A stretch of DNA of 64,000 nucleotides from Watersipora subatra. Lineage: Eukaryota; Bryozoa; Gymnolaemata; Cheilostomatida; Watersiporidae. Position 1 is the first letter of the stretch, and each line of letters begins with the position of its first letter. Shown here in pieces: positions 11,770 to 37,488 of the stretch. The translations under genes and the position numbers were made by a program. The notes below the pieces were generated by a model. The model was not told where the DNA came from. It saw nothing but the letters and a program-made list of their open reading frames with translations, and ran no database searches. The stretch is from the NCBI RefSeq assembly GCF_963576615.1, contig NC_088711.1, forward strand, positions 36,568,121-36,632,120. The letters run 5' to 3'.

Positions 11770-13870
11770 TTATATATAAAACAGGGTGAAAACGTCACAT
11801 AATAGAACTACCATGTCTTATATATAAAACAGGGTTAAGACTTCACATAATAGAACTACCATGTCTTATATATACAACAGAATAAAGTCTTCACATAATA
11901 GAACTACCATGTCTTATATATACAACAGGGTTAAGACTTCACATAATAGAACTACCATGTCTTATATATACAACAGGGTGAAGACTTCACATAATAGAAC
12001 TACCATGTCTTATATATACAACAGGGTGAAGTCTTCACATAATAGAACTACCATGTCTCATATATAAAACAGGGTTAAGACTTCACATAATAGAACTACC
12101 ATGTCTTATATATAAAACAGGGTAAAGTATTCACATAATAGAACTACCATGTCTTATATATACAACAGGGTTAAGACTTCACATAATAGAACTACCATGT
12201 CTTATATATAAAACAGGGTTAAGACTTCACATAATAGAACTACCATGTCTTATATATACAATAGGGTAAAATCTTCACATAATAGAACTACCATGTCTTA
12301 TATATACAACAGGGTTAAGACTTCACATAATAGAACTACCATGTCTTATATATACAACAGGGTAAAGTCTTCACATAATAGAACTACCTTGTCTTATATA
12401 TAAAACAGGATAAAGTATTCACATAATAGAACTACCATGTCTTATATATACAATAGGGTAAAATCTTCACATAATAGAACTACCATGTCTTATATATAAA
12501 ACAGGGTGAAAACGTCACATAATAGAACTACCATGTCTTATATATAAAACAGGATAAAGTATTCACATAATAGAACTACCATGTCTTATATATACAATAG
12601 GGTAAAGTCTTCACATAATAGAACTACCTTGTCTTATATATAAAACAGGATAAAGTCTTCACATAATAGAACTACCATGTCTTATATATAAAACAGGGTG
12701 AAAACGTCACATAATAGAACTACCATGTCTTATATATAAAACAGGGTAAAGTCTTCACATAATAGAACTACCATGTCTTATATATACAACAGGGTAAAGT
12801 CTTCACATAATAGAACTACCTTGTCTTATATATAAAACAGGATAAAGTATTCACATAATAGAACTACCATGTCTTATATATACAATAGGGTAAAATCTTC
12901 ACATAATAGAACTACCATGTCTTATATATAAAACAGGGTGAAAACGTCACATAATAGAACTACCATGTCTTATATATACAACAGGGTTAAGACTTCACAT
13001 AATAGAACTACCATGTCTTATATATAAAACAGGGTTAAGACTTCACATAATAGAACTACCATGTCTTATATATAAAACAGGGTAAAGTATTCACATAATA
13101 GAACTACCATGTCTTATATATACAATAGGGTAAAGACTTCACATAATAGAACTACCATGTCTTATATATACAACAGGGTTAAGACTTCACATAATAGAAC
13201 TACCATGTCTTATATATAAAACAGGGTAAAGTATTCACATAATAGAACTACCATGTCTTATATATACAACAGGGTAAAGTCTTCACATAATAGAACTACC
13301 TTGTCTTATATATAAAACAGGATAAAGTCTTCACATAATAGAACTACCATGTCTTATATATACAATAGGGTAAAATCTTCACATAATAGAACTACCATGT
13401 CTTATATATAAAACAGGGTGAAAACGTCACATAATAGAACTACCATGTCTTATATATAAAACAGGGTAAAGTATTCACATAATAGAACTACCATGTCTTA
13501 TATATACAATAGGGTAAAATCTTCACATAATAGAACTACCATGTCTTATATATAAAACAGGGTGAAAACGTCACATAATAGAACTACCATGTCTTATATA
13601 TAAAACAGGGTAAAGTATTCACATAATAGAACTACCATGTCTTATATATACAACAGGGTAAAGTCTTCACATAATAGAACTACCATGTCTTATATATAAA
13701 ACAGGGTTAAGTCTTCACATAATAGAACTACCATGTCTTATATATAAAACAGGGTAAAGTATTCACATAATAGAACTACCATGTCTTATATATACAATAG
13801 GGTAAAATCTTCACATAATAGAACTACCATGTCTTATATATAAAACAGGGTGAAAACGTCACATAATAGA
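11770..13870. repeat. CpG-bearing variant domain of the satellite
   Basis: This part of the array is enriched in units whose dyad reads GTGAAAACGTCAC instead of GTGAAGACTTCAC. These alternate with GGATAAAGTATTC and AATAGGGTAAAATC variants in a loose short period of about 9 units (432 bp). The consensus 48-bp unit has no CpG at all, so this variant is almost the only source of CpG in the array. Single copies also occur near 4,351, 5,449, 18,310, 22,921, 25,130, 29,731, 35,788 and 36,172. Confidence 0.75.
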
Positions 13871-16800
13871 ACTACCATGTCTTATATATAAAACAGGGTA
13901 AAGTATTCACATAATAGAACTACCTTGTCTTATATATACAATAGGGTAAAATCTTCACATAATAGAACTACCATGTCTTATATATACAACAGGGTAAAGT
14001 CTTCACATAATAGAACTACCATGTCTTATATATAAAACAGGGTTAAGACTTCACATAATAGAACTACCATGTCTTATATATAAAACAGGGTAAAGTATTC
14101 ACATAATAGAACTACCATGTCTTATATATACAACAGGGTAAAATCTTCACATAATAGAACTACCATGTCTTATATATAAAACAGGGTAAAGTATTCACAT
14201 AATAGAACTACCATGTCTTATATATACAATAGGGTAAAATCTTCACATAATAGAACTACCATGTCTTATATATAAAACAGGGTTAAGACTTCACATAATA
14301 GAACTACCTTGTCTTATATATAAAACAGGGTTAAGACTTCACATAATAGAACTACCATGTCTTATATATACAACAGGGTAAAATCTTCACATAATAGAAC
14401 TACCATGTCTTATATATACAACAGGGTTAAGACTTCACATAATAGAACTACCTTGTCTTATATATACAACAGGGTAAAGACTTCACATAATAGAACTACC
14501 ATGTCTTATATATACAACAGGGTTAAGACTTCACATAATAGAACTACCTTGTCTTATATATAAAACACGGTTAAGACTTCACATAATAGAACTACCATGT
14601 CTTATATATACAACAGGGTAAAATCTTCACATAATAGAACTACCATGTCTTATATATAAAACAGGGTTAAGACTTCACATAATAGAACTACCATGTCTTA
14701 TATATACAACAGGGTAAAGTCTTCACATAATAGAACTACCATGTCTTATATATAAAACAGGGTAAAGTATTCACATAATAGAACTACCATGTCTTATATA
14801 TACAATAGGGTTAAGACTTCACATAATAGAACTACCTTGTCTTATATATACAACAGGGTAAAGACTTCACATAATAGAACTACCATGTCTTATATATACA
14901 ACAGGGTTAAGACTTCACATAATAGAACTACCTTGTCTTATATATACAACAGGGTAAAGACTTCACATAATAGAACTACCATGTCTTATATATACAACAG
15001 GGTTAAGACTTCACATAATAGAACTACCATGTCTTATATATACAATAGGGTAAAGTCTTCACATAATAGAACTACCATGTCTTATATATAAAACAGGGTA
15101 AAGACTTCACATAATAGAACTACCATGTCTTATATATAAAACAGGGTAAAGTATTCACATAATAGAACTACCATGTCTTATATATAAAACAGGGTTAAGA
15201 CTTCACATAATAGAACTACCATGTCTTATATATAAAACAGGGTTAAGACTTCACATAATAGAACTACCATGTCTTATATATACAACAGGGTAAAGTATTC
15301 ACATAACAGAACTACCATGTCTTATATATACAATAGGGTAAAATCTTCACATAATAGAACTACCATGTCTTATATATACAACAGGGTTAAGACTTCACAT
15401 AATAGAACTACCATGTCTTATATATAAAACAGGGTTAAGACTTCACATAATAGAACTACCATGTCTTATATATACAACAGGGTTAAGACTTCACATAATA
15501 GAACTACCATGTCTTATATATACAACAGGGTAAAGTCTTCACATAATAGAACTACCATGTCTTATATATACAATAGGGTAAAGTCTTCACATAATAGAAC
15601 TACCATGTCTTATATATAAAACAGGGTAAAGTATTCACATAATAGAACTACCATGTCTTATATATACAATAGGGTAAAATCTTCACATAATAGAACTACC
15701 ATGTCTTATATATACAACAGGGTTAAGACTTCACATAATAGAACTACCATGTCTTATATATAAAACAGGGTTAAGACTTCACATAATAGAACTACCATGT
15801 CTTATATATACAACAGGGTTAAGACTTCACATAATAGAACTACCATGTCTTATATATACAACAGGGTAAAGTCTTCACATAATAGAACTACCTTGTCTTA
15901 TATATAAAACAGGATAAAGTCTTCACATAATAGAACTACCATGTCTTATATATAAAACAGGGTAAAGTATTCACATAATAGAACTACCATGTCTTATATA
16001 TACAACAGGGTAAAGACTTCACATAATAGAACTACCATGTCTTATATATAAAACAGGGTTAAGACTTCACATAATAGAACTACCATGTCTTATATATACA
16101 ACAGGGTTAAGACTTCACATAATAGAACTACCATGTCTTATATATACAACAGGGTTAAGACTTCACATAATAGAACTACCATGTCTTATATATACAACAG
16201 GGTTAAGTCTTCACATAATAGAACTACCATGTCTTATATATAAAACAGGGTTAAGACTTCACATAATAGAACTACCATGTCTTATATATACAACAGGGTA
16301 AAGTATTCACATAATAGAACTACCATGTCTTATATATACAACAGGGTAAAGACTTCACATAATAGAACTACCATGTCTTATATATAAAACAGGGTTAAGA
16401 CTTCACATAATAGAACTACCATGTCTTATATATACAACAGGGTTAAGACTTCACATAATAGAACTACCATGTCTTATATATACAACAGGGTAAAGTCTTC
16501 ACATAATAGAACTACCATGTCTTATATATAAAACAGGGTTAAGACTTCACATAATAGAACTACCATGTCTTATATATAAAACAGGGTAAAGTATTCACAT
16601 AATAGAACTACCATGTCTTATATATACAATAGGGTAAAATCTTCACATAATAGAACTACCATGTCTTATATATACAACAGGGTTAAGACTTCACATAATA
16701 GAACTACCATGTCTTATATATAAAACAGGGTGAAGTCTTCACATAATAAAACTACCATGTCTTATATATAAAACAGAGTGAAGTCTTCACATAATAGAAC

Positions 16801-17703
16801 TACCATGTCTTATATATAAAACAGGGTAAAGTATTCACATAATAGAACTACCATGTCTTATATATACAATAGGGCAAAATCTTCACATAATAGAACTACC
16901 ATGTCTTATATATACAACAGGGTTAAGACTTCACATAATAGAACTACCATGTCTTATATATACAACAGGGTAAAGTCTTCACATAATAGAACTACCTTGT
17001 CTTATATATAAAACAGGATAAAGTCTTCACATAATAGAACTACCATGTCTTATATATACAACAGGGTAAAATCTTCACATAATAGAACTACCATGTCTTA
17101 TATATACAACAGGGTTAAGACTTCACATAATAGAACTACCTTGTCTTATATATAAAACAGGGTGAAAACGTCACATAGTAGAACTACCATGTCTTATATA
17201 TAAAACAGGGTAAAGTATTCACATAATAGAACTACCATGTCTTATATATACAACAGGGTAAAGACTTCACATAATAGAACTACCATGTCTTATATATACA
17301 ATAGGGTAAAATCTTCACATAATAGAACTACCATGTCTTATATATACAATAGGGTGAAGTCTTCACAAAATAGAACTACCATGTCTTATATATACAACAG
17401 GGTTAAGACTTCACATAATAGAACTACCATGTCTTATATATACAACAGGGTAAAGACTTCACATAATAGAACTACCATGTCTTATATATACAACAGGGTT
17501 AAGACTTCACATAATAGAACTACCATGTCTTACATATACAACAGGGTGAAGTCTTCACATAATAGAACTACCATGTCTTATATATAAAACAGGGTGAAGT
17601 CTTCACATAATAGAACTACCATGTCTTATATATAAAACAAGGTAAAGTATTCACATAATAGAACTACCATGTCTTATATATACAATAGGGTAAAATCTTC
17701 ACA

Positions 17704-20700
17704 TAATAGAACTACCATGTCTTATATATAAAACAGGGTTAAGACTTCACATAATAGAACTACCTTGTCTTATATATAAAACAGGGTTAAGACTTCACAT
17801 AATAGAACTACCATGTCTTATATATACAACAGGGTAAAGTCTTCACATAATAGAACTACCATGTCTTATATATAAAACAGGGTTAAGACTTCACATAATA
17901 GAACTACCACGTCTTATATATAAAACAGGGCAAAATCTTCACATAATAGAACTACCATGTCTTATATATACAACAGGGTTAAGACTTCACATAATAGAAC
18001 TACCATGTCTTATATATAAAACAGGGTTAAGGCTTCACATAATAGAACTACCATGTCTTATATATACAACAGGGTAAAGTCTTCACATAATAGAACTACC
18101 ATGTCTTATATATACAATAGGGTAAAATCTTCACATAATAGAACTACCATGTCTTATATATACAACAGGGTTAAGACTTCACATAATAGAACTACCATGT
18201 CTTATATATACAACAGGGTAAAGTCTTCACATAATAGAACTACCTTGTCTTATATATAAAACAGGATAAAGTCTTCACATAATAGAACTACCATGTCTTA
18301 TATATAAAACAGGGTGAAAACGTCACATAATAGAACTACCATGTCTTATATATAAAACAGGGTAAAGTCTTCACATAATAGAACTACCATGTCTTATATA
18401 TACAATAGGGCAAAATCTTCACATAATAGAACTACCATGTCTTATATATACAACAGGGTAAAGTCTTCACATAATAGAACTACCATGTCTTATATATAAA
18501 ACAGAGTGAAGTCTTCACATAATAGAACTACCATGTCTTATATATACAACAGGGTTAAGACTTCACATAATAGAACTACCATGTCTTATATATAAAACAG
18601 GGTTAAGACTTCACATAATAGAACTACCATGTCTTATATATACAATAGGGCAAAATCTTCACATAATAGAACTACCATGTCTTATATATAAAACAGGATA
18701 AAGTATTCACATAATAGAACTACCATGTCTTATATATACAATAGGGCAAAATCTTCACATAATAGAACTACCATGTCTTATATATACAACAGGGTTAAGA
18801 CTTCACATAATAGAACTACCATGTCTTATATATAAAACAGGGTTAAGACTTCACATAATAGAACTACCATGTCTTATATATACAACAGGGTAAAGTCTTC
18901 ACATAATAGAACTACCTTGTCTTATATATAAAACAGGATAAAGTCTTCACATAATAGAACTACCATGTCTTATATATAAAACAGGGTGAAGTCTTCACAT
19001 AATAGAACTACCATGTCTTATATATAAAACAGGGTTAAGACTTCACATAATAGAACTACCATGTCTTATATATAAAACAGGGTTAAGGCTTCACATAATA
19101 GAACTACCATGTCTTATATATACAACAGGGTAAAGTCTTCACATAATAGAACTACCATGTCTTATATATAAAACAGGGTAAAGTCTTCACATAATAGAAC
19201 TACCTTGTCTTATATATAAAACAGGGTTAAGACTTCACATAATAGAACTACCATGTCTTATATATACAACAGGGTGAAGTCTTCACATAATAGAACTACC
19301 ATGTCTTATATATAAAACAGGGTTAAGACTTCACATAATAGAACTACCATGTCTTATATATAAAACAGGGTTAAGGCTTCACATAATAGAACTACCATGT
19401 CTTATATATACAACAGGGTAAAGTCTTCACATAATAGAACTACCATGTCTTACATATACAACAGGGTGAAGTCTTCACATAATAGAACTACCATGTCTTA
19501 TATATAAAACAGGGTTAAGACTTCACATAATAGAACTACCATGTCTTATATATACAACAGGGTAAAGTCTTCACATAATAGAACTACCATGTCTTACATA
19601 TACAACAGGGTGAAGTCTTCACATAATAGAACTACCATGTCTTATATATACAACAGGGTGAAGTCTTCACATAATAGAACTACCATGTCTTACATATACA
19701 ACAGGGTGAAGGCTTCACATAATAGAACTACCATGTCTTATATATACAACAGGGTTAAGTCTTCACATAATAGAACTACCATGTCTTATATATACAACAG
19801 GGTGAAGACTTCACATAATAGAACTACCATGTCTTATATATACAACAGGGTTAAGGCTTCACATAATAGAACTACCATGTCTTATATATAAAACAGGGTG
19901 AAGTCTTCACATAATAGAACTACCATGTCTTATATATAAAACAGGGTAAAGTCTTCACATAATAGAACTACCATGTCTTATATATAAAACAGGGTTAAGG
20001 CTTCACATAATAGAACTACCATGTCTTATATATACAACAGGGTAAAGACTTCACATAATAGAACTACCATGTCTTATATATACAACAGGGTTAAGTCTTC
20101 ACATAATAGAACTACCATGTCTTATATATACAACAGGGTGAAGACTTCACATAATAGAACTACCATGTCTTATATATACAACAGGGTTAAGGCTTCACAT
20201 AATAGAACTACCATGTCTTATATATAAAACAGGGTGAAGTCTTCACATAATAGAACTACCATGTCTTATATATAAAACAGGGTAAAGTCTTCACATAATA
20301 GAACTACCATGTCTTATATATACAACAGGGTAAAGACTTCACATAATAGAACTACCATGTCTTATATATAAAACAGGGTAAAGTCTTCACATAATAGAAC
20401 TACCATGTCTTATATATACAACAGGGTAAAGACTTCACATAATAGAACTACCATGTCTTATATATAAAACAGGGTGAAGTCTTCACATAATAGAACTACC
20501 ATGTCTTATATATACAACAGGGTAAAATCTTCACATAATAGAACTACCATGTCTTATATATAAAACAGGGTGAAGTCTTCACATAATAGAACTACCATGT
20601 CTTATATATACAACAGGGTAAAGACTTCACATAATAGAACTACCATGTCTTATATATAAAACAGGGTGAAGTCTTCACATAATAGAACTACCATGTCTTA

Positions 20701-23700
20701 TATATACAACAGGGTTAAGACTTCACATAATAGAACTACCATGTCTTATATATAAAACAGGGTTAAGACTTCACATAATAGAACTACCATGTCTTATATA
20801 TAAAACAGGGTTCAGACTTCACATAATAGAACTACCATGTCTTATATATAAAACAGGGTTAAGGCTTCACATAATAGAACTACCATGTCTTATATATACA
20901 ATAGGGTGAAGTCTTCACATAATAGAACTACCATGTCTTATATATACAACAGGGTTAAGACTTCACATAATAGAACTACCATGTCTTATATATAAAACAG
21001 GGTAAAGACTTCACATAATAGAACTACCATGTCTTATATATAAAACAGGGTGAAGTCTTCACATAATAGAACTACCATGTCTTATATATACAACAGGGTT
21101 AAGACTTCACATAATAGAACTACCATGTCTTATATATACAACAGGGTTAAGACTTCACATAATAGAACTACCATGTCTTATATATACAACAGGGTAAAGT
21201 CTTCACATAATAGAACTACCATGTCTTATATATAAAACAGGGTTAAGACTTCACATAATAGAACTACCATGTCTTATATATAAAACAGGGTTAAGACTTC
21301 ACATAATAGAACTACCATGTCTTATATATAAAACAGGGTTAAGGCTTCACATAATAGAACTACCATGTCTTATATATACAATAGGGTGAAGTCTTCACAT
21401 AATAGAACTACCATGTCTTATATATACAACAGGGTTAAGACTTCACATAATAGAACTACCATGTCTTATATATACAACAGGGTAAAGACTTCACATAATA
21501 GAACTACCATGTCTTATATATAAAACAGGGTTAAGGCTTCACATAATAGAACTACCATGTCTTATATATACAATAGGGTGAAGTCTTCACATAATAGAAC
21601 TACCATGTCTTATATATACAACAGGGTTAAGACTTCACATAATAGAACTACCATGTCTTATATATAAAACAGGGTAAAGACTTCACATAATAGAACTACC
21701 ATGTCTTATATATAAAACAGGGTAAAGACTTCACATAATAGAACTACCATGTCTTATATATAAAACAGGGTTAAGACTTCACATAATAGAACTACCATGT
21801 CTTATATATAAAACAGGGTTAAGACTTCACATAATAGAACTACCATGTCTTATATATAAAACAGGGTGAAGTCTTCACATAATAGAACTACCATGTCTTA
21901 TATATAAAACAGGGTAAAGACTTCACATAATAGAACTACCATGTCTTATATATAAAACAGGGTTAAGACTTCACATAATAGAACTACCATGTCTTATATA
22001 TAAAACAGGGTTAAGACTTCACAAAATAGAACTACCATGTCTTATATATACAACAGGGTTAAGACTTCACATAATAGAACTACCATGTCTTATATATAAA
22101 ACAGGGTTAAGACTTCACAAAATAGAACTACCATGTCTTATATATACAACAGGGTTAAGACTTCACATAATAGAACTACCATGTCTTATATATACAACAG
22201 GGTGAAGTCTTCACATAATAGAACTACCATGTCTTATATATAAAACAGGGTTAAGACTTCACATAATAGAACTACCATGTCTTATATATACAACAGGGTA
22301 AAGTCTTCACATAATAGAACTACCATGTCTTATATATAAAACAGGGTTAAGACTTCACATAATAGAACTACCATGTCTTATATATAAAACAGGGTTAAGA
22401 CTTCACATAATAGAACTACCATGTCTTATATATAAAACAGGGTGAAGTCTTCACATAATAGAACTACCATGTCTTATATATAAAACAGGGTTAAGACTTC
22501 ACATAATAGAACTACCATGTCTCATATATACAACAGGGTAAAGTCTTCACATAATAGAACTACCATGTCTTATATATAAAACAGGGTTAAGACTTCACAT
22601 AATAGAACTACCATGTCTTATATATACAACAGGGTAAAGACTTCACATAATAGAACTACCATGTCTTATATATACAACAGGGTTAAGACTTCACATAATA
22701 GAACTACCATGTCTTATATATACAACAGGGTAAAGTCTTCACATAATAGAACTACCATGTCTTATATATACAACAGGGTAAAGACTTCACATAATAGAAC
22801 TACCATGTCTTATATATAAAACAGGGTTAAGGCTTCACATAATAGAACTACCATGTCTTATATATACAACAGGGTAAAGACTTCACATAATAGAACTACC
22901 ATGTCTTATATATAAAACAGGGTGAAAACGTCACATAATAGAACTACTTTGTCTTATATATACAACAGGGTAAAGACTTCACATAATAGAACTACCATGT
23001 CTTATATATAAAACAGGGTGAAGTCTTCACATAATAGAACTACCATGTCTTATATATACAACAGGGTAAAGACTTCACATAATAGAACTACCATGTCTTA
23101 TATATACAACAGGGTAAAGTCTTCACATAATAGAACTACCATGTCTTATATATAAAACAGGGTTAAGACTTCACATAATAGAACTACCATGTCTTATATA
23201 TAAAACAGGGTAAAGTCTTCACATAATAGAACTACCATGTCTTATATATACAACAGGGTTAAGACTTCACATAATAGAACTACCATGTCTTATATATAAA
23301 ACAGGGTAAAGTCTTCACATAATAGAACTACCATGTCTTATATATACAACAGGGTTAAGACTTCACATAATAGAACTACCATGTCTTATATATAAAACAG
23401 GGTTAAGACTTCACATAATAGAACTACCATGTCTTATATATACAACAGGGTAAAGTCTTCACAAAATAGAACTACCATGTCTTATATATAAAACAGGGTT
23501 AAGACTTCACATAATAGAACTACCATGTCTTATATATACAACAGGGTGAAGACTTCACATAATAGAACTACCATGTCTTATATATACAACAGGGTTAAGA
23601 CTTCACATAATAGAACTACCATGTCTTATATATACAACAGGGTGAAGTCTTCACATAATAGAACTACCATGTCTTATATATACAACAGGGTAAAGTCTTC

Positions 23701-24519
23701 ACAAAATAGAACTACCATGTCTTATATATAAAACAGGGTTAAGACTTCACATAATAGAACTACCATGTCTTATATATACAACAGGGTAAAGACTTCACAT
23801 AATAGAACTACCATGTCTTATATATAAAACAGGGTTAAGACTTCACATAATAGAACTACCTTGTCTTATATATAAAACAGGGTGAAGTCTTCACATAATA
23901 GAACTACCATGTCTTATATATAAAACAGGGTTAAGACTTCACATAATAGAACTACCATGTCTCATATATACAACAGGGTAAAGTCTTCACATAATAGAAC
24001 TACCATGTCTTATATATACAATAGGGTGAAGTCTTCACATAATAGAACTACCATGTCTTATATATAAAACAGGGTTAAGACTTCACATAATAGAACTACC
24101 ATGTCTTATATATACAACAGGGTAAAGTCTTCACATAATAGAACTACCATGTCTTATATATACAACAGGGTAAAGACTTCACATAATAGAACTACCATGT
24201 CTTATATATAAAACAGGGTTAAGGCTTCACATAATAGAACTACCATGTCTTATATATACAATAGGGTGAAGTCTTCACATAATAGAACTACCATGTCTTA
24301 TATATACAACAGGGTTAAGACTTCACATAATAGAACTACCATGTCTTATATATACAACAGGGTTAAGACTTCACATAATAGAACTACCATGTCCTATATA
24401 TACAACAGGGTTAAGACTTCACATAATAGAACTACCATGTCTTATATATAAAACAGGGTGAAGACTTCACATAATAGAACTACCATGTCTTATATATACA
24501 ACAGGATAAAGTCTTCACA
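17704..24519. repeat. 6,816-bp higher-order repeat, first copy
   Basis: Within the 48-bp array, the pattern of variant units from about 17,704 recurs 6,816 bp (142 units) later. Anchor blocks that recur at exactly this offset begin at 18,053, 19,541, 20,021, 21,050, 22,613, 23,525 and 24,245. The copies differ by only a few substitutions, for example TTATATA versus TTACATA near 18,255/25,071 and TCTTACA versus TCGTACA near 19,450/26,266. This is a recent tandem duplication of a large block rather than unit-by-unit turnover. Confidence 0.9.
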
Positions 24520-27500
24520 TAATAGAACTACCATGTCTTATATATAAAACAGGGTTAAGACTTCACATAATAGAACTACCTTGTCTTATATATAAAACAG
24601 GGTTAAGACTTCACATAATAGAACTACCATGTCTTATATATACAACAGGGTAAAGTCTTCACATAATAGAACTACCATGTCTTATATATAAAACAGGGTT
24701 AAGACTTCACATAATAGAACTACCATGTCTTATATATAAAACAGGGCAAAATCTTCACATAATAGAACTACCATGTCTTATATATACAACAGGGTTAAGA
24801 CTTCACATAATAGAACTACCATGTCTTATATATAAAACAGGGTTAAGGCTTCACATAATAGAACTACCATGTCTTATATATACAACAGGGTAAAGTCTTC
24901 ACATAATAGAACTACCATGTCTTATATATACAATAGGGTAAAATCTTCACATAATAGAACTACCATGTCTTATATATACAACAGGGTTAAGACTTCACAT
25001 AATAGAACTACCATGTCTTATATATACAACAGGGTAAAGTCTTCACATAATAGAACTACCTTGTCTTACATATAAAACAGGATAAAGTCTTCACATAATA
25101 GAACTACCATGTCTTATATATAAAACAGGGTGAAAACGTCACATAATAGAACTACCATGTCTTATATATAAAACAGGGTAAAGTCTTCACATAATAGAAC
25201 TACCATGTCTTATATATACAATAGGGCAAAATCTTCACATAATAGAACTACCATGTCTTATATATACAACAGGGTAAAGTCTTCACATAATAGAACTACC
25301 ATGTCTTATATATAAAACAGAGTGAAGTCTTCACATAATAGAACTACCATGTCTTATATATACAACAGGGTTAAGACTTCACATAATAGAACTACCATGT
25401 CTTATATATAAAACAGGGTTAAGACTTCACATAATAGAACTACCATGTCTTATATATACAATAGGGCAAAATCTTCACATAATAGAACTACCATGTCTTA
25501 TATATAAAACAGGATAAAGTATTCACATAATAGAACTACCATGTCTTATATATACAATAGGGCAAAATCTTCACATAATAGAACTACCATGTCTTATATA
25601 TACAACAGGGTTAAGACTTCACATAATAGAACTACCATGTCTTATATATAAAACAGGGTTAAGACTTCACATAATAGAACTACCATGTCTTATATATACA
25701 ACAGGGTAAAGTCTTCACATAATAGAACTACCTTGTCTTATATATAAAACAGGATAAAGTCTTCACATAATAGAACTACCATGTCTTATATATAAAACAG
25801 GGTGAAGTCTTCACATAATAGAACTACCATGTCTTATATATAAAACAGGGTTAAGACTTCACATAATAGAACTACCATGTCTTATATATAAAACAGGGTT
25901 AAGGCTTCACATAATAGAACTACCATGTCTTATATATACAACAGGGTAAAGTCTTCACATAATAGAACTACCATGTCTTATATATAAAACAGGGTAAAGT
26001 CTTCACATAATAGAACTACCTTGTCTTATATATAAAACAGGGTTAAGACTTCACATAATAGAACTACCATGTCTTATATATACAACAGGGTGAAGTCTTC
26101 ACATAATAGAACTACCATGTCTTATATATAAAACAGGGTTAAGACTTCACATAATAGAACTACCATGTCTTATATATAAAACAGGGTTAAGGCTTCACAT
26201 AATAGAACTACCATGTCTTATATATACAACAGGGTAAAGTCTTCACATAATAGAACTACCATGTCGTACATATACAACAGGGTGAAGTCTTCACATAATA
26301 GAACTACCATGTCTTATATATAAAACAGGGTTAAGACTTCACATAATAGAACTACCATGTCTTATATATACAACAGGGTAAAGTCTTCACATAATAGAAC
26401 TACCATGTCTTACATATACAACAGGGTGAAGTCTTCACATAATAGAACTACCATGTCTTATATATACAACAGGGTGAAGTCTTCACATAATAGAACTACC
26501 ATGTCTTACATATACAACAGGGTGAAGGCTTCACATAATAGAACTACCATGTCTTATATATACAACAGGGTTAAGTCTTCACATAATAGAACTACCATGT
26601 CTTATATATACAACAGGGTGAAGACTTCACATAATAGAACTACCATGTCTTATATATACAACAGGGTTAAGGCTTCACATAATAGAACTACCATGTCTTA
26701 TATATAAAACAGGGTGAAGTCTTCACATAATAGAACTACCATGTCTTATATATAAAACAGGGTAAAGTCTTCACATAATAGAACTACCATGTCTTATATA
26801 TAAAACAGGGTTAAGGCTTCACATAATAGAACTACCATGTCTTATATATACAACAGGGTAAAGACTTCACATAATAGAACTACCATGTCTTATATATACA
26901 ACAGGGTTAAGTCTTCACATAATAGAACTACCATGTCTTATATATACAACAGGGTGAAGACTTCACATAATAGAACTACCATGTCTTATATATACAACAG
27001 GGTTAAGGCTTCACATAATAGAACTACCATGTCTTATATATAAAACAGGGTGAAGTCTTCACATAATAGAACTACCATGTCTTATATATAAAACAGGGTA
27101 AAGTCTTCACATAATAGAACTACCATGTCTTATATATACAACAGGGTAAAGACTTCACATAATAGAACTACCATGTCTTATATATAAAACAGGGTAAAGT
27201 CTTCACATAATAGAACTACCATGTCTTATATATACAACAGGGTAAAGACTTCACATAATAGAACTACCATGTCTTATATATAAAACAGGGTGAAGTCTTC
27301 ACATAATAGAACTACCATGTCTTATATATACAACAGGGTAAAATCTTCACATAATAGAACTACCATGTCTTATATATAAAACAGGGTGAAGTCTTCACAT
27401 AATAGAACTACCATGTCTTATATATACAACAGGGTAAAGACTTCACATAATAGAACTACCATGTCTTATATATAAAACAGGGTGAAGTCTTCACATAATA

Positions 27501-30500
27501 GAACTACCATGTCTTATATATACAACAGGGTTAAGACTTCACATAATAGAACTACCATGTCTTATATATAAAACAGGGTTAAGACTTCACATAATAGAAC
27601 TACCATGTCTTATATATAAAACAGGGTTCAGACTTCACATAATAGAACTACCATGTCTTATATATAAAACAGGGTTAAGGCTTCACATAATAGAACTACC
27701 ATGTCTTATATATACAATAGGGTGAAGTCTTCACATAATAGAACTACCATGTCTTATATATACAACAGGGTTAAGACTTCACATAATAGAACTACCATGT
27801 CTTATATATAAAACAGGGTAAAGACTTCACATAATAGAACTACCATGTCTTATATATAAAACAGGGTGAAGTCTTCACATAATAGAACTACCATGTCTTA
27901 TATATACAACAGGGTTAAGACTTCACATAATAGAACTACCATGTCTTATATATACAACAGGGTTAAGACTTCACATAATAGAACTACCATGTCTTATATA
28001 TACAACAGGGTAAAGTCTTCACATAATAGAACTACCATGTCTTATATATAAAACAGGGTTAAGACTTCACATAATAGAACTACCATGTCTTATATATAAA
28101 ACAGGGTTAAGACTTCACATAATAGAACTACCATGTCTTATATATAAAACAGGGTTAAGGCTTCACATAATAGAACTACCATGTCTTATATATACAATAG
28201 GGTGAAGTCTTCACATAATAGAACTACCATGTCTTATATATACAACAGGGTTAAGACTTCACATAATAGAACTACCATGTCTTATATATACAACAGGGTA
28301 AAGACTTCACATAATAGAACTACCATGTCTTATATATAAAACAGGGTTAAGGCTTCACATAATAGAACTACCATGTCTTATATATACAATAGGGTGAAGT
28401 CTTCACATAATAGAACTACCATGTCTTATATATACAACAGGGTTAAGACTTCACATAATAGAACTACCATGTCTTATATATAAAACAGGGTAAAGACTTC
28501 ACATAATAGAACTACCATGTCTTATATATAAAACAGGGTAAAGACTTCACATAATAGAACTACCATGTCTTATATATAAAACAGGGTTAAGACTTCACAT
28601 AATAGAACTACCATGTCTTATATATAAAACAGGGTTAAGACTTCACATAATAGAACTACCATGTCTTATATATAAAACAGGGTGAAGTCTTCACATAATA
28701 GAACTACCATGTCTTATATATAAAACAGGGTAAAGACTTCACATAATAGAACTACCATGTCTTATATATAAAACAGGGTTAAGACTTCACATAATAGAAC
28801 TACCATGTCTTATATATAAAACAGGGTTAAGACTTCACAAAATAGAACTACCATGTCTTATATATACAACAGGGTTAAGACTTCACATAATAGAACTACC
28901 ATGTCTTATATATAAAACAGGGTTAAGACTTCACAAAATAGAACTACCATGTCTTATATATACAACAGGGTTAAGACTTCACATAATAGAACTACCATGT
29001 CTTATATATACAACAGGGTGAAGTCTTCACATAATAGAACTACCATGTCTTATATATAAAACAGGGTTAAGACTTCACATAATAGAACTACCATGTCTTA
29101 TATATACAACAGGGTAAAGTCTTCACATAATAGAACTACCATGTCTTATATATAAAACAGGGTTAAGACTTCACATAATAGAACTACCATGTCTTATATA
29201 TAAAACAGGGTTAAGACTTCACATAATAGAACTACCATGTCTTATATATAAAACAGGGTGAAGTCTTCACATAATAGAACTACCATGTCTTATATATAAA
29301 ACAGGGTTAAGACTTCACATAATAGAACTACCATGTCTCATATATACAACAGGGTAAAGTCTTCACATAATAGAACTACCATGTCTTATATATAAAACAG
29401 GGTTAAGACTTCACATAATAGAACTACCATGTCTTATATATACAACAGGGTAAAGACTTCACATAATAGAACTACCATGTCTTATATATACAACAGGGTT
29501 AAGACTTCACATAATAGAACTACCATGTCTTATATATACAACAGGGTAAAGTCTTCACATAATAGAACTACCATGTCTTATATATACAACAGGGTAAAGA
29601 CTTCACATAATAGAACTACCATGTCTTATATATAAAACAGGGTTAAGGCTTCACATAATAGAACTACCATGTCTTATATATACAACAGGGTAAAGACTTC
29701 ACATAATAGAACTACCATGTCTTATATATAAAACAGGGTGAAAACGTCACATAATAGAACTACCTTGTCTTATATATACAACAGGGTAAAGACTTCACAT
29801 AATAGAACTACCATGTCTTATATATAAAACAGGGTGAAGTCTTCACATAATAGAACTACCATGTCTTATATATACAACAGGGTAAAGACTTCACATAATA
29901 GAACTACCATGTCTTATATATACAACAGGGTAAAGTCTTCACATAATAGAACTACCATGTCTTATATATAAAACAGGGTTAAGACTTCACATAATAGAAC
30001 TACCATGTCTTATATATAAAACAGGGTAAAGTCTTCACATAATAGAACTACCATGTCTTATATATACAACAGGGTTAAGACTTCACATAATAGAACTACC
30101 ATGTCTTATATATAAAACAGGGTAAAGTCTTCACATAATAGAACTACCATGTCTTATATATACAACAGGGTTAAGACTTCACATAATAGAACTACCATGT
30201 CTTATATATAAAACAGGGTTAAGACTTCACATAATAGAACTACCATGTCTTATATATACAACAGGGTAAAGTCTTCACAAAATAGAACTACCATGTCTTA
30301 TATATAAAACAGGGTTAAGACTTCACATAATAGAACTACCATGTCTTATATATACAACAGGGTGAAGACTTCACATAATAGAACTACCATGTCTTATATA
30401 TACAACAGGGTTAAGACTTCACATAATAGAACTACCATGTCTTATATATACAACAGGGTGAAGTCTTCACATAATAGAACTACCATGTCTTATATATACA

Positions 30501-31383
30501 ACAGGGTAAAGTCTTCACAAAATAGAACTACCATGTCTTATATATAAAACAGGGTTAAGACTTCACATAATAGAACTACCATGTCTTATATATACAACAG
30601 GGTAAAGACTTCACATAATAGAACTACCATGTCTTATATATAAAACAGGGTTAAGACTTCACATAATAGAACTACCTTGTCTTATATATAAAACAGGGTG
30701 AAGTCTTCACATAATAGAACTACCATGTCTTATATATAAAACAGGGTTAAGACTTCACATAATAGAACTACCATGTCTCATATATACAACAGGGTAAAGT
30801 CTTCACATAATAGAACTACCATGTCTTATATATACAATAGGGTGAAGTCTTCACATAATAGAACTACCATGTCTTATATATAAAACAGGGTTAAGACTTC
30901 ACATAATAGAACTACCATGTCTTATATATACAACAGGGTAAAGTCTTCACATAATAGAACTACCATGTCTTATATATACAACAGGGTAAAGACTTCACAT
31001 AATAGAACTACCATGTCTTATATATAAAACAGGGTTAAGGCTTCACATAATAGAACTACCATGTCTTATATATACAATAGGGTGAAGTCTTCACATAATA
31101 GAACTACCATGTCTTATATATACAACAGGGTTAAGACTTCACATAATAGAACTACCATGTCTTATATATACAACAGGGTTAAGACTTCACATAATAGAAC
31201 TACCATGTCCTATATATACAACAGGGTTAAGACTTCACATAATAGAACTACCATGTCTTATATATAAAACAGGGTGAAGACTTCACATAATAGAACTACC
31301 ATGTCTTATATATACAACAGGATAAAGTCTTCACATAATAGAACTACCATGTCTTATATATAAAACAGGGTTAAGACTTCACA
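24520..31383. repeat. 6,816-bp higher-order repeat, second copy
   Basis: This block directly abuts the first copy and repeats its order of variant units at a constant +6,816 bp offset until about 31,350-31,380. There the next unit pattern stops matching the start of the copy and a different short-period pattern begins. No unit-number change was seen between the two copies at the anchors compared, so the duplication is younger than the other internal duplications. Confidence 0.88.
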
Positions 31384-34300
31384 TAATAGAACTACCATGT
31401 CTTATATATAAAACAGGGTAAAGACTTCACATAATAGAACTACCATGTCTTATATATACAACAGGGTAAAGACTTCACATAATAGAACTACCATGTCTTA
31501 TATATAAAACAGGGTAAAGTCTTCACATAATAGAACTACCATGTCTTATATATACAACAGGGTTAAGACTTCACATAATAGAACTACCATGTCTTATATA
31601 TACAACAGGGTTAAGACTTCACATAATAGAACTACCATGTCTTATATATAAAACAGGGTTAAGACTTCACATAATAGAACTACCATGTCTTATATATACA
31701 ACAGGGTAAAGTCTTCACAAAATAGAACTACCATGTCTTATATATAAAACAGGGTTAAGACTTCACATAATAGAACTACCATGTCTTATATATACAACAG
31801 GGTGAAGACTTCACATAATAGAACTACCATGTCTTATATATACAACAGGGTAAAGACTTCACATAATAGAACTACCATGTCTTATATATACAATAGGGTG
31901 AAGTCTTCACATAATAGAACTACCATGTCTTATATATACAACAGGGTTAAGACTTCACATAATAGAACTACCATGTCTTATATATACAACAGGGTTAAGA
32001 CTTCACATAATAGAACTACCATGTCTTATATATAAAACAGGGTTAAGGCTTCACATAATAGAACTACCATGTCTTATATATACAATAGGGTGAAGTCTTC
32101 ACATAATAGAACTACCATGTCTTATATATACAACAGGGTTAAGACTTCACATAATAGAACTACCATGTCTTATATATACAACAGGGTTAAGACTTCACAT
32201 AATAGAACTACCATGTCTTATATATAAAACAGGGTGAAGACTTCACATAATAGAACTACCATGTCTTATATATACAACAGGATAAAGTCTTCACATAATA
32301 GAACTACCATGTCTTATATATAAAACAGGGTTAAGACTTCACATAATAGAACTACCATGTCTTATATATAAAACAGGGTAAAGACTTCACATAATAGAAC
32401 TACCATGTCTTATATATACAACAGGGTAAAGACTTCACATAATAGAACTACCATGTCTTATATATAAAACAGGGTAAAGTCTTCACATAATAGAACTACC
32501 ATGTCTTATATATACAACAGGGTTAAGACTTCACATAATAGAACTACCATGTCTTATATATAAAACAGGGTAAAGTCTTCACATAATAGAACTACCATGT
32601 CTTATATATACAACAGGGTTAAGACTTCACATAATAGAACTACCATGTCTTATATATAAAACAGGGTTAAGACTTCACATAATAGAACTACCATGTCTTA
32701 TATATACAACAGGGTAAAGTCTTCACAAAATAGAACTACCATGTCTTATATATAAAACAGGGTTAAGACTTCACATAATAGAACTACCATGTCTTATATA
32801 TACAACAGGGTGAAGACTTCACATAATAGAACTACCATGTCTTATATATACAACAGGGTAAAGACTTCACATAATAGAACTACCATGTCTTATATATACA
32901 ATAGGGTGAAGTCTTCACATAATAGAACTACCATGTCTTATATATACAACAGGGTTAAGACTTCACATAATAGAACTACCATGTCTTATATATACAACAG
33001 GGTGAAGTCTTCACATAATAGAACTACCATGTCTTATATATAAAACAGGGTTAAGACTTCACATAATAGAACTACCATGTCTTATATATACAACAGGGTA
33101 AAGTCTTCACATAATAGAACTACCATGTCTTATATATAAAACAGGGTTAAGACTTCACATAATAGAACTACCATGTCTTATATATAAAACAGGGTGAAGT
33201 CTTCACATAATAGAACTACCATGTCTTATATATAAAACAGGGTTAAGACTTCACATAATAGAACTACCATGTCTCATATATACAACAGGGTAAAGTCTTC
33301 ACATAATAGAACTACCATGTCTTATATATAAAACAGGGTTAAGACTTCACATAATAGAACTACCATGTCTTATATATACAATAGGGTGAAGTCTTCACAT
33401 AATAGAACTACCATGTCTTATATATACAACAGGGTTAAGACTTCACATAATAGAACTACCATGTCTTATATATACAACAGGGTGAAGTCTTCACATAATA
33501 GAACTACCATGTCTTATATATAAAACAGGGTTAAGACTTCACATAATAGAACTACCATGTCTTATATATACAACAGGGTAAAGTCTTCACATAATAGAAC
33601 TACCATGTCTTATATATAAAACAGGGTTAAGACTTCACATAATAGAACTACCATGTCTTATATATAAAACAGGGTTAAGACTTCACATAATAGAACTACC
33701 ATGTCTTATATATAAAACAGGGTGAAGTCTTCACATAATAGAACTACCATGTCTTATATATAAAACAGGGTTAAGACTTCACATAATAGAACTACCATGT
33801 CTCATATATACAACAGGGTAAAGTCTTCACATAATAGAACTACCATGTCTTATATATAAAACAGGGTTAAGACTTCACATAATAGAACTACCATGTCTTA
33901 TATATACAACAGGGTAAAGTCTTCACATAATAGAACTACCATGTCTTATATATACAACAGGGTAAAGACTTCACATAATAGAACTACCATGTCTTATATA
34001 TACAACAGGGTAAAGTCTTCACATAATAGAACTACCATGTCTTATATATACAACAGGGTAAAGTCTTCACATAATAGAACTACCATGTCTTATATATAAA
34101 ACAGGGTTAAGACTTCACATAATAGAACTACCATGTCTTATATATACAACAGGGTAAAGTCTTCACATAATAGAACTACCATGTCTTATATATACAACAG
34201 GGTAAAGACTTCACATAATAGAACTACCATGTCTTATATATAAAACAGGGTTAAGGCTTCACATAATAGAACTACCATGTCTTATATATACAATAGGGTG

Positions 34301-35960
34301 AAGTCTTCACATAATAGAACTACCATGTCTTATATATACAACAGGGTTAAGACTTCACATAATAGAACTACCATGTCTTATATATACAACAGGGTTAAGA
34401 CTTCACATAATAGAACTACCATGTCCTATATATACAACAGGGTTAAGACTTCACATAATAGAACTACCATGTCTTATATATACAACAGGGTTAAGACTTC
34501 ACATAATAGAACTACCATGTCTTATATATACAACAGGGTTAAGACTTCACATAATAGAACTACCATGTCCTATATATACAACAGGGTGAAGACTTCACAT
34601 AATAGAACTACCATGTCTTATATATACAACAGGATAAAGTCTTCACATAATAGAACTACCATGTCTTATATATAAAACAGGGTGAAGACTTCACATAATA
34701 GAACTACCATGTCTTATATATACAACAGGATAAAGTCTTCACATAATAGAACTACCATGTCTTATATATACAACAGGGTTAAGACTTCACATAATAGAAC
34801 TACCATGTCTTATATATAAAACAGGGTTAAGACTTCACATAATAGAACTACCATGTCTTATATATAAAACAGGGTAAAGACTTCACATAATAGAACTACC
34901 ATGTCTTATATATAAAACAGGATAAAGTCTTCACATAATAGAACTACCATGTCTTATATATAAAACAGGGTTAAGACTTCACATAATAGAACTACCATGT
35001 CTTATATATAAAACAGGGTAAAGACTTCACATAATAGAACTACCATGTCTTATATATACAACAGGGTAAAGACTTCACATAATAGAACTACCATGTCTTA
35101 TATATAAAACAGGGTAAAGTCTTCACATAATAGAACTACCATGTCTTATATATACAACAGGGTTAAGACTTCACATAATAGAACTACCATGTCTTATATA
35201 TACAACAGGGTTAAGACTTCACATAATAGAACTACCATGTCTTATATATAAAACAGGGTTAAGACTTCACATAATAGAACTACCATGTCTTATATATACA
35301 ACAGGGTAAAGTCTTCACAAAATAGAACTACCATGTCTTATATATAAAACAGGGTTAAGACTTCACATAATAGAACTACCATGTCTTATATATACAACAG
35401 GGTGAAGACTTCACATAATAGAACTACCATGTCTTATATATACAACAGGGTAAAGACTTCACATAATAGAACTACCATGTCTTATATATACAACAGGGTG
35501 AAGTCTTCACATAATAGAACTACCATGTCTTATATATACAACAGGGTAAAGTCTTCACAAAATAGAACTACCATGTCTTATATATAAAACAGGGTTAAGA
35601 CTTCACATAATAGAACTACCATGTCTTATATATACAACAGGGTAAAGACTTCACATAATAGAACTACCATGTCTTATATATAAAACAGGGTTAAGACTTC
35701 ACATAATAGAACTACCTTGTCTTATATATAAAACAGGATAAAGTCTTCACATAATAGAACTACCATGTCTTATATATAAAACAGGGTGAAAACGTCACAT
35801 AATAGAACTACCTTGTCTTATATATACAACAGGGTAAAGACTTCACATAATAGAACTACCATGTCTTATATATACAACAGGGTGAAGTCTTCACATAATA
35901 GAACTACCATGTCTTATATATACAACAGGGTAAAGTCTTCACAAAATAGAACTACCATGT
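31321..35960. repeat. Short nested higher-order repeats near the array edge
   Basis: Here the large 142-unit period gives way to smaller ones. A block starting with a GGATAAAGTC unit at 31,321 recurs at 32,281 (+960 bp, 20 units) and 34,921 (+3,600 bp, 75 units). After one added unit the first pair continues at +1,008 bp (31,781 versus 32,789). A further pair at about 33,046 and 33,526 is spaced 480 bp (10 units). The layered sizes suggest repeated local unequal exchange close to the right end of the array. Confidence 0.75.
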
Positions 35961-36788
35961 CTTATATATAAAACAGGGTTAAGACTTCACATAATAGAAC
36001 TACCATGTCTTATATATACAACAGGGTAAAGACTTCACATAATAGAACTACCATGTCTTATATATACAACAGGGTAAAGACTTCACATAATAGAACTACC
36101 ATGTCTTATATATAAAACAGGGTGAAGTCTTCACATAATAGAACTACCATGTCTTATATATAAAACAGGGTGAAAACGTCACATAATAGAACTACCTTGT
36201 CTTATATATACAACAGGGTAAAGACTTCACATAATAGAACTACCATGTCTTATATATAAAACAGGGTGAAGTCTTCACATAATAGAACTACCATGTCTTA
36301 TATATACAACAGGGTAAAGACTTCACATAATAGAACTACCATGTCTTATATATAAAACAGGGTGAAGTCTTCACATAATAGAACTACCATGTCTTATATA
36401 TACAACAGGGTAAAGACTTCACATAATAGAACTACCATGTCTTATATATAAAACAGGGTTAAAACTTCACATAATAGAACTACCATGTCTTATATATAAA
36501 ACAGGGTTAAGACTTCACATAATAGAACTACCATGTCTTATATATACAACAGGGTAAAGTCTTCACATAATAGAACTACCATGTTTTATATATGCAACAG
36601 GGTGAAGTCTTCACATAATAGAACTACCATGTCTTATATAAACAACAAGGTAAAGTCTTCACATAATAGAACTACCATGTCTTATATATACAACAGGGTT
36701 AAGACATCACATAATAGAACTACCATGTCTTATATATACAACAAGATAAAAAGCCCACATACTCCCAGCTATCAGGAGTTGCATTTAC

Positions 36789-36921
36789 CTTCTTCGCTTG
36801 CTACTAAAGGATGCAATTCAGCAGCAGAATTGTCCAACACTGGTTGATCTTTATCGCTTTCCAACTCATCTACTTCTCTGGAATCCTTGTGGAGGTTTAT
36901 ATCAACTTCCTCAGTATCCAT
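36789..36921 (-). CDS. Candidate first coding exon of an unrecognised gene
   Basis: On the minus strand an ATG at 36,921 opens 44 codons plus one base. The start context is good (ACAATGG, A at -3 and G at +4), with an in-frame TGA about 21 bp upstream. The peptide begins MDTEEVDINLHKDSREVDEL and continues acidic and hydrophilic, ending ...HPLVASEE. The exon ends in a strong donor, GAAGAAG|GTAAAT, at 36,788/36,787. Unspliced, the frame would stop five codons later, giving a 49-residue peptide. A plausible acceptor (CCTTCTTTAG) sits 11 bp before the ATG, so a 5' untranslated exon or spliced leader may precede it. I do not recognise the protein and infer no function. The donor lies only about 43 bp from the last 48-bp satellite unit, so the intron would run into the array. 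The alternatives are a chance frame or a decayed gene. The codon pattern, start context and donor together make coding the better reading. Confidence 0.55.
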
Positions 36922-37031
36922 TGTTACGTACCCTAAAGAAGGTCACAAGATCACATGGAATGAAAATAATACAGTTTGGAACACAATTTATTTCACAATT
37001 GTAGCTGGACCACAACTACTTTTAGGTAGCA

Positions 37032-37060
37032 ATAAATACTGTTTAGAAGACAGTATTTAT
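37032..37060. other. Perfect 11-bp hairpin upstream of the minus-strand exon
   Basis: ATAAATACTGT at 37,032-37,042 and ACAGTATTTAT at 37,050-37,060 are exact reverse complements around a 7-base loop. The hairpin lies about 110 bp upstream of the candidate ATG at 36,921, between the exon and the 17-bp minisatellite. It could be a regulatory or RNA structure, or a chance feature of AT-rich DNA. Confidence 0.6.
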
Positions 37061-37096
37061 AAGCTAATGGCAGCAATCAGAAGTCATTTTATGACC

Positions 37097-37488
37097 TACA
37101 GGTTAACACTAACTACAGGTTAACATTGAATATGGGTTAACACTGACTGCAGGTTAATACAGAGAACAGGTTAACACTGTATACAGGTTAACACTGTATA
37201 CAGGTTAACACTGTCTACAGGTTAACAATGACTACAGGTTAACACTGACTACAGGTTAACACTGACTACAGGTTAACACAGACTACAGGTTAATACAGAC
37301 TATAGATTAACACAGACTACTGGTTAACACAGATGACAGATTAACACTGTCTACAGGTAAACAATGACTACAGGTTAACACTGACTGCAGGTTAACACAG
37401 ACTATGGATTAACACTGACTACTGGTTAACACAGTCGACAGATGAACACTGTCTACAGGTTAACAATGACTGCAGGTTAATACAGACG
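37097..37488. repeat. 17-bp minisatellite, about 23 units
   Basis: A tandem repeat with consensus AGGTTAACACTGACTAC, each unit carrying the HpaI-type palindrome GTTAAC. Units vary mainly at the last six bases and at the AACACTG segment (AACAATG, AATACAG). A 102-bp (six-unit) higher-order pattern is visible between about 37,331 and 37,433. It shows no obvious similarity to the 48-bp satellite and lies on the other side of the candidate exon. Confidence 0.93.

What the first reader, a model, noticed from the sequence alone, without database searches (positions are those of the whole stretch)
36746..36921. A coding exon abuts the satellite: the 36.7-kb array may be a first intron
The minus strand has an ATG in strong context, 44 clean codons, and a GAAGAAG|GTAAAT donor only about 43 bp from the last satellite unit. 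Transcription in this direction must cross the array to reach a second exon. A gene whose first coding intron holds more than 36 kb of pure 48-bp satellite would be a striking case of intronic heterochromatin, comparable in kind to the giant satellite introns of some fly Y genes.
Basis: partly seen in the sequence, partly recalled or inferred. Interest (0 to 1): 0.85.

Follow-up and report, generated by a model that had tools for sequence, protein, structure and literature searches.

The report
Transporter gene with 82-kb satellite intron
A small first exon and eleven further exons of what looks like a single-copy sodium/proton transporter gene lie on either side of an 82,000-letter block of one 48-letter repeat that was found nowhere else in this animal's assembled genome, so the gene probably has to be transcribed and spliced across an intron that is almost pure satellite DNA.

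Summary
The own genome (G000, 784 Mb) let me cross the array. It runs on left of the window to C4:36522905: 1,708 head-to-tail 48-bp units, 81,983 bp, uninterrupted. The minus-strand exon (36921-36789) ends 21 bp from it. Beyond the far end, 81 bp away on the same strand, is an acceptor (TTCTTTTTCCAG|G) whose exon continues in frame (phase 1). With it and ten further exons the model is a 563-aa open frame that matches SLC9B2/NHA2 sodium/proton exchangers (E 1.2e-111; PF00999 E 4.6e-30). An own-genome protein search gave 12 places, all these 12 exons. Intron 1 is 82,085 bp, 99.88% satellite; the others are 0.4-6.7 kb. All copies of a 28-base satellite core in the genome (1,472 exact; 1,706 with up to 3 mismatches) lie in this array. 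The array appears to have grown by recent multi-kb block duplications. Not shown: RNA. The exon 1-exon 2 join rests on frame, splice sites, coding statistics and position; exon 1 lies in the unconserved N-terminal tail. Species not identified.

The parts
1..36767 (+). Right-hand 36.8 kb of an 81,983-bp array of a 48-bp satellite (whole array C4:36522905-36604887; 1,708 units, 91 distinct, all in one orientation, one 1-bp deletion)
36720..36767 (+). Last satellite unit, diverged (11 of 48 mismatches)
36772..36774 (-). TGA that would end the frame if the donor were not used
36783..36788 (-). Splice donor of exon 1 (AAG|GTAAAT); start of the 82,085-bp intron
   Evidence: 8/9 to consensus; 1.45% of 21,056 flanking GT sites score as high on a small weight matrix made from the gene's other donors
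36789..36921 (-). First coding exon of an SLC9B/NHA-like gene (MDTEEVDINLHKDSREVDELESDKDQPVLDNSAAELHPLVASEE|G), ends in phase 1
36922..36934 (-). 11 nt before the ATG preceded by an acceptor-like CCTTCTTTAG; possible 5'-UTR intron or trans-splice acceptor; if used, the exon is 144 nt and phase 1-1
   Evidence: 3.8% of 22,025 flanking AG sites score as high
37032..37060 (-). Short hairpin (ATAAATACTGT/ACAGTATTTAT) with a TATA-like stretch upstream of exon 1; role unknown
37096..37480 (.). 17-bp minisatellite, 22.6 copies, upstream of exon 1

Best explanation
The finding is the first coding exon of an apparently single-copy SLC9B/NHA-type sodium/proton antiporter gene on the minus strand. Its first coding intron (82,085 bp) consists, except for 21 bp at the donor end and 81 bp at the acceptor end, of one uninterrupted 48-bp satellite that was found nowhere else in the assembled genome. 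RNA polymerase II would cross the whole array; the spliceosome would join exon 1 (acidic tail) to exon 2 and the membrane domain. Shown by sequence: the array and its limits, the exons on both sides, frame, splice-site sequences, family, confinement of the satellite to this array. Inferred: that the primary transcript crosses the array and is spliced. Also inferred: the satellite arose inside this intron as a minisatellite, of which this gene has several others, and grew recently by duplication of blocks of about 4-8 kb (unequal exchange or replication-based), tolerated because the repeat carries no poly(A) hexamer AATAAA/ATTAAA on the transcribed strand and no splice site there as strong as the exon 1 donor or the exon 2 acceptor.
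For: Full array and far side in hand. Far-side acceptor TTCTTTTTCCAG|GA, phase 1 as required; exon 2 open; exons 3-12 in frame, 563 aa without stop. SLC9B2 structures at E 1.2e-111 and 1.8e-111 over model residues 99-562 and 83-561, with the DD ion-site pair aligned; PF00999 E 4.6e-30. Own-genome protein search (E up to 0.01): 12 of 12 matches are these exons. Exon 1 coding signal 0 of 200 simulations and 0 of 163,575 windows. Satellite core: 1,472 of 1,472 exact and 1,706 of 1,706 copies with up to 3 mismatches lie in this array (genome counts; positions). On the transcribed strand of the array 0 of 8,399 GT and 0 of 5,043 AG sites score as high as the exon 1 donor or exon 2 acceptor, and AATAAA and ATTAAA occur 0 times. 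These absences follow from the 48-bp consensus and are permissive, not evidence of selection.
Against: No transcript evidence. Exon 1 and most of exon 2 lie outside the region aligned to known NHA2 proteins, so homology does not confirm the join. The exon 2 frame is open upstream through the 81 bp and 58 bp into the array, about 46 codons, with in-frame ATGs, so a start on the far side is conceivable. The exon 2 acceptor is only moderate by a matrix made from the gene's ten other acceptors (2.9% of 22,025 AG sites score as high); the exon 2 donor (AAG|GTTGAT) is 6 of 9. The array is not free of usable-looking sites: its best minus-strand GT (5.9) scores above the gene's own weakest donor (5.1), its best AG (5.57) is about equal to the gene's two weakest acceptors (5.6), and 1,741 GT sites match the consensus at 6 and 118 at 7 of 9 positions. 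The exon 3 start has three in-phase options, and the exon 10/11 junction was chosen by frame after a first model ran into stops there because its exon 10 end was mis-specified.
Confidence: 0.85

Rival explanations
1. Exon 1 was once part of the gene but is now cut off: transcripts start between the array and exon 2 (or in the last satellite units), so the array is upstream DNA, not an intron.
For: The exon 2 frame is open upstream for about 46 codons with in-frame ATGs; exon 1 is not in the conserved part.
Against: Exon 1 keeps an intact frame, a strong coding signal, an 8/9 donor and the right phase; exon 2 keeps an acceptor that needs an upstream exon, and there is little room for one in 81 bp or in the uninterrupted array.
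Confidence: 0.08
2. The 49-codon frame is chance and the array is intergenic.
For: An ATG frame with an 8/9 donor occurs in 36.5% of simulated 27-kb stretches; no Pfam match above a cut-off and no PDB match to the peptide alone. The real flanks also hold two other exon-like sites by simple rules, against 0.14 per 27 kb simulated.
Against: Codon statistics not reached in 200 simulations, whereas the two other exon-like sites score at most 0.12 on the G1-G2 measure; the next coding exon on that strand across the array fits in phase.
Confidence: 0.03
3. Exon 1 is an internal exon (144 nt, phase 1-1) and coding exons exist further upstream, so the array fills a later intron.
For: Acceptor-like CCTTCTTTAG 11 nt before the ATG with an open frame through it; it scores 6.2, slightly above the gene's weakest acceptors (5.6).
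Against: On the minus strand up to the plus-strand gene at 54846 only one stretch is well above the simulated mean of 12.0 bits: 41282-41443 with 18.2 (18.1, simulated maximum 21.7), and it looks like part of an LTR; the next are 11.6 and less. Strong ATG context; 98 residues before the aligned part against 69 in 7p1i, so the tail is already long enough. Short exons would be missed.
Confidence: 0.1
4. Assembly artefact: the array was placed here or its length is wrong.
For: Recurring array blocks of about 4-8 kb are 99.7-100% identical (19 of the 20 longest rows), which is hard to assemble; no reads were available.
Against: Both flanks are exons of one apparently single-copy gene in the right order and strand; all copies found lie in one array with one 1-bp indel in 82 kb. 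Length error is more likely than misplacement.
Confidence: 0.04

Closest known systems
Drosophila Y-linked fertility genes kl-3 and kl-5 with satellite-filled gigantic introns (PMC6508621, passages read)
   Same: A protein-coding gene whose introns, including the first for kl-3, hold tandem satellite DNA that must be transcribed and spliced across.
   Different: There the introns reach megabases and hold simple satellites such as (AATAT)n, on the Y chromosome, spermatogenesis only. Here 82 kb of a 48-bp unit not found in the rest of the genome, in a transporter gene on a 67-Mb contig of unknown sex linkage, assembled from exon to exon.
CACNA1C intronic 30-bp VNTR 'TRACT', 3-30+ kb (PMC13131567, search listing only)
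   Same: Intronic tandem array of a short unit in an ion-transport gene.
   Different: Here 82 kb in the one assembly and 99.88% of the intron; length variation between individuals not testable. That TRACT is private to its locus is recalled.
Local repeats such as those of the Firre locus (PMC4820808, search listing only)
   Same: Repeats that occur many times within one locus and not elsewhere.
   Different: Firre is a non-coding RNA gene (recalled); here a single continuous satellite block in a protein-coding gene's intron.
SLC9B2/NHA2 sodium/proton exchanger (7p1i, 7b4l; PMC9174904, passages read)
   Same: Whole membrane domain aligned, DD pair present.
   Different: N-terminal tail not alignable; gene carries the satellite intron.

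Membership tests
SLC9B/NHA sodium/proton antiporter | Homology to NHA2 over the whole membrane domain | tested here: met
   7p1i E 1.2e-111 (model 99-562), 7b4l E 1.8e-111 (model 83-561)
SLC9B/NHA sodium/proton antiporter | Na_H_Exchanger fold family PF00999 | tested here: met
   E 4.6e-30, 105.2 bits, cut-off 26.2
SLC9B/NHA sodium/proton antiporter | DD ion-binding pair in the core (D278/D279 in human NHA2) | tested here: met
   SLDD of the model aligned to SFDD
SLC9B/NHA sodium/proton antiporter | Sodium or lithium/proton exchange activity | not testable with these tools
   needs expression
Gene with satellite-filled giant intron (Drosophila Y-loop kind) | Intron made up almost wholly of satellite DNA | tested here: met
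   81,983 of 82,085 bp
Gene with satellite-filled giant intron (Drosophila Y-loop kind) | Megabase intron size | tested here: not met
   82 kb
Gene with satellite-filled giant intron (Drosophila Y-loop kind) | Satellite is transcribed within the primary transcript and spliced out | not testable with these tools
   no RNA data; exons, frame and phase fit
Gene with satellite-filled giant intron (Drosophila Y-loop kind) | Y linkage and spermatocyte expression | not tested
   sex linkage and species unknown
Intronic VNTR (CACNA1C TRACT kind) | Short-unit tandem array in an intron; confined to one locus (recalled for TRACT) | tested here: met
   all 1,706 genome copies with up to 3 mismatches of a 28-base core lie in one intron
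Intronic VNTR (CACNA1C TRACT kind) | Length variation between individuals | not testable with these tools
   one assembly only; recent block duplications make it likely

The most novel reading that the evidence does not exclude
The array is more than passive filler: a satellite born, amplified and homogenised inside the transcription unit of one apparently single-copy gene and kept there because it does something, either as a timing or gating device for this transporter or, more boldly, as a chromosome-specific heterochromatic or centromere-like site (it lies about 54% along a 67-Mb contig and was found on no other contig) that the gene is transcribed through.
Probability: 0.06. Interest if true: 0.9.

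Novelty: new variant of a known kind. Interest (0 to 1): 0.62.

Why it matters
Satellite-filled introns are best documented for fly Y chromosomes, where, by recollection, the repeats are shared with other heterochromatin and hard to assemble. Here both exons, the whole 82 kb between them and its block-by-block growth can be read, in a gene of known family, and the repeat appears private to the intron. That makes two open questions testable at one locus: how a satellite is born and grows, and how far a gene can be stretched by pure satellite and still be transcribed and spliced. As a single-locus repeat it also gives a clean probe: satellite RNA or DNA signal should come from this intron alone. 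What I say about the literature is limited to the ten searches made, in a library that lacks most subscription papers.

Tried and rejected
Considered and set aside: (1) The array as a coding repeat: one of six frames is open in many units and varies most at third positions, but 359 of 765 window units carry A at unit position 20, which makes a TAA, and the longest open run in the window part is 178 codons. (2) Growth by slippage of single units: adjacent units are no more alike than random pairs (0.9398 against 0.9427; 0.9439 against 0.9469 in the window), while 1,540 of 1,708 units lie in blocks of 15+ units that recur; of the 20 longest rows listed, 19 have 99.7-100% nucleotide identity and one reads 0.37, which I put down to the single 1-bp deletion shifting the register. 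(3) A simple higher-order repeat (96 or 240 bp, as TRF suggested): autocorrelation at these lags is barely above that at 48. The fall of fixed-lag identity with distance is at least partly that deletion and was discarded for the unit-based measure. (4) Lack of poly(A) hexamers, strong splice sites and CpG (65 against 1,816 expected) as signs of selection: each follows from one 48-bp consensus, so it is one draw, not thousands. (5) Viral or prokaryotic origin of the repeat: no exact match to a 27-base core in viral contigs or genome contigs. (6) Rfam on the window: nothing at gathering score. (7) Taxon: molluscan hemocyanin PF14830 not found, but the control rang nowhere either, so it says nothing. 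(8) PF00999 alone over the genome found 11 places, none in this gene, presumably because its single exons score too low. (9) The exon-like scan did not list exon 1 itself, by my reading because of its end margin; it listed two other sites (three frames) in the real flanks. (10) The bacterial promoter and terminator scan says nothing for a eukaryote.

Full report
What was checked. The minus-strand frame is as described: ATG at 36921, 44 codons and one base, GAAGAAG|GTAAAT, TGA at 36774-36772 if unspliced. The donor matches the consensus at 8 of 9 positions. A frame with such a donor is not in itself rare (36.5% of 200 simulated 27-kb stretches). Its codon content is: 25.5 bits against a mean best of 12.0 and a maximum of 21.7 over 200 simulations, and a position-1/position-2 G asymmetry of 0.4255 that 0 of 163,575 simulated stop-free windows reach. 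The first measure was trained on the long plus-strand frame of the same window and is mostly amino-acid composition (22.1 of 25.5 bits). The second needs no training, but it is not sensitive: exons 2-12 of the gene itself range from 0.023 to 0.386.

The array. In the window it has 766 units including the diverged last one. When the own genome became reachable (window = C4:36568121-36632120 of a 783.7-Mb assembly in 239 contigs), 200 kb to the left were fetched. The array ends there at C4:36522905. In all it has 1,708 units, 81,983 bp, 91 distinct unit sequences (the two edge units included), one orientation and one 1-bp deletion; only the two edge units differ at more than 7 of 48 positions (14 and 11 mismatches). 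A 28-base core occurs 1,472 times exactly in the whole genome, and 1,472 lie in this array; with up to three mismatches 1,706 in the genome and 1,706 in the array; none in reverse. The repeat is therefore private to this locus in this assembly, within the limits of that pattern.

The other side. On the minus strand, 81 bp past the far end of the array, stands TTCTTTTTCCAG|GAAATGAAGAG. Exon 1 ends in phase 1; this exon supplies the two missing bases (G|GA = Gly) and reads NEEMRADDNLFSGEAVYRPTTAPIEPDQDHSRFSCTACRK. Ten more exons follow within about 26 kb. The joined model has 564 codons including the stop and no internal stop; introns are 82,085, 742, 2,768, 503, 3,328, 1,777, 1,291, 3,499, 3,729, 392 and 6,656 bp. 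The only PDB sequences matched (E up to 0.001) are two SLC9B2/NHA2 exchangers (E 1.2e-111 over residues 99-562 and 1.8e-111 over 83-561); Pfam gives PF00999 at 4.6e-30; the two-aspartate ion site described for NHA2 (PMC9174904, passages) is present in the alignment. A protein search of the own genome returns 12 places, exactly these 12 exons, so the gene appears single-copy at that sensitivity (E up to 0.01, 12 candidates scored); distant relatives exist, since PF00999 matches 11 places elsewhere.

How sure is the join? Shown: same strand, order, phase, splice-site sequences, coding statistics of exon 1, and nothing but the uninterrupted array between exon 1 and exon 2. Against: the tail encoded by exon 1 and most of exon 2 is not conserved in NHA2, so homology is silent there; the exon 2 acceptor is moderate by a matrix built from the gene's own ten other acceptors (2.9% of 22,025 flanking AG sites are as strong) and its donor is 6 of 9; the frame upstream of exon 2 is open 58 bp into the satellite with possible start codons; and there is no RNA. 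Details of the model that could be off: the exon 3 start (three in-phase AGs), the exon 10/11 junction (chosen by frame after a first attempt failed there), and a donor-like GAAAA|GTGAGT at the stop codon that could add a further exon.

How it probably works. Inference: polymerase II crosses about 82 kb of satellite before exon 2. On the transcribed strand none of 8,399 GT or 5,043 AG sites in the array scores as high as the exon 1 donor or the exon 2 acceptor, and AATAAA and ATTAAA do not occur. The array is not blank, however: its best GT (5.9) scores above the gene's weakest donor (5.1), its best AG (5.57) is close to the two weakest acceptors (5.6), and 118 GT sites match the donor consensus at 7 of 9 positions. 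Because the array is one 48-bp sequence repeated, these scores are close to a single draw rather than evidence of selection; they would only help to explain why the gene tolerates the insert. At a few kb per minute (recalled) the crossing would take tens of minutes.

How it grew. Adjacent units are no more alike than random pairs, yet 1,540 of 1,708 units belong to blocks of 15 or more units that recur elsewhere in the array. The longest are 157 and 143 units (7.5 and 6.9 kb) at 99.95 and 99.94% identity; two block pairs of 4.9 kb and one of 3.8 kb are 100% identical. So recent growth was by duplicating multi-kb blocks. The gene looks prone to this: outside the satellite, tandem arrays (TRF score 100 or more) cover 8,617 of 26,479 bp (33%) of the gene span against 10,190 of 155,538 bp (6.6%) of the rest of the 182 kb examined. 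The four longest arrays of that stretch (1.2-2.4 kb; periods 30, 18, 24 and 30) all lie in other introns of this gene.

What is known. Drosophila kl-3 and kl-5 have introns of simple satellite DNA reaching megabases, also in the first intron of kl-3 (PMC6508621, passages). A 30-bp intronic VNTR of 3-30+ kb is described in CACNA1C (PMC13131567, listing only). In Tribolium, dispersed single satellite repeats are enriched in introns (PMC5844308, passages). NHA1 and NHA2 control sperm motility in mice by the title and abstract start of PMC4823964 (listing only), a loose parallel to the fly fertility genes that is only a lead. Among the papers listed by ten searches I saw no case of a locus-private satellite of this size filling an intron; that is a statement about those listings only.

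Verdict. It is a new variant of a known kind: a satellite-filled intron, with a repeat private to it, in an apparently single-copy transporter gene.

Noticed in passing
C4:36496580-36522823 (loci L006-L009; introns 3, 5, 8, 9 of the gene): Each of four other introns of the same gene holds its own minisatellite (1.2-2.4 kb; periods 24, 30, 30, 18), and these are the four longest tandem arrays in 182 kb outside the satellite; tandem repeats cover 33% of the gene span against 6.6% outside.
   Followed up: partly
window 54846-58397 (+): 1,184-codon open frame, disordered and charged by eye, starting MGNSRSS (possible myristoylation site, recalled), probably the large first exon of a neighbouring divergent gene; no Pfam or PDB match at E up to 1.
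   Followed up: partly
window 41050-41690: Looks by eye like a solo LTR: TATA-like TCTATAAAAGAG, AATAAA, and a spurious coding-like minus-strand frame at 41282-41443. Not compared with any element library.
   Followed up: no
window 46141-47330 and 54061-54730: Two foldback, MITE-like elements: the longest arms are 148 and 190 nt, 84% and 89% complementary.
   Followed up: no
window 37032-37060: Hairpin ATAAATACTGT-loop-ACAGTATTTAT about 110 nt upstream of the exon 1 ATG; as RNA -17.9 kcal/mol for 66 nt, z -3.9.
   Followed up: partly
window 1-36767: Unit variation is concentrated at unit positions 20, 29 and 33; their order along the array looks aperiodic within blocks but is copied faithfully between blocks kilobases apart, like a barcode.
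   Followed up: partly
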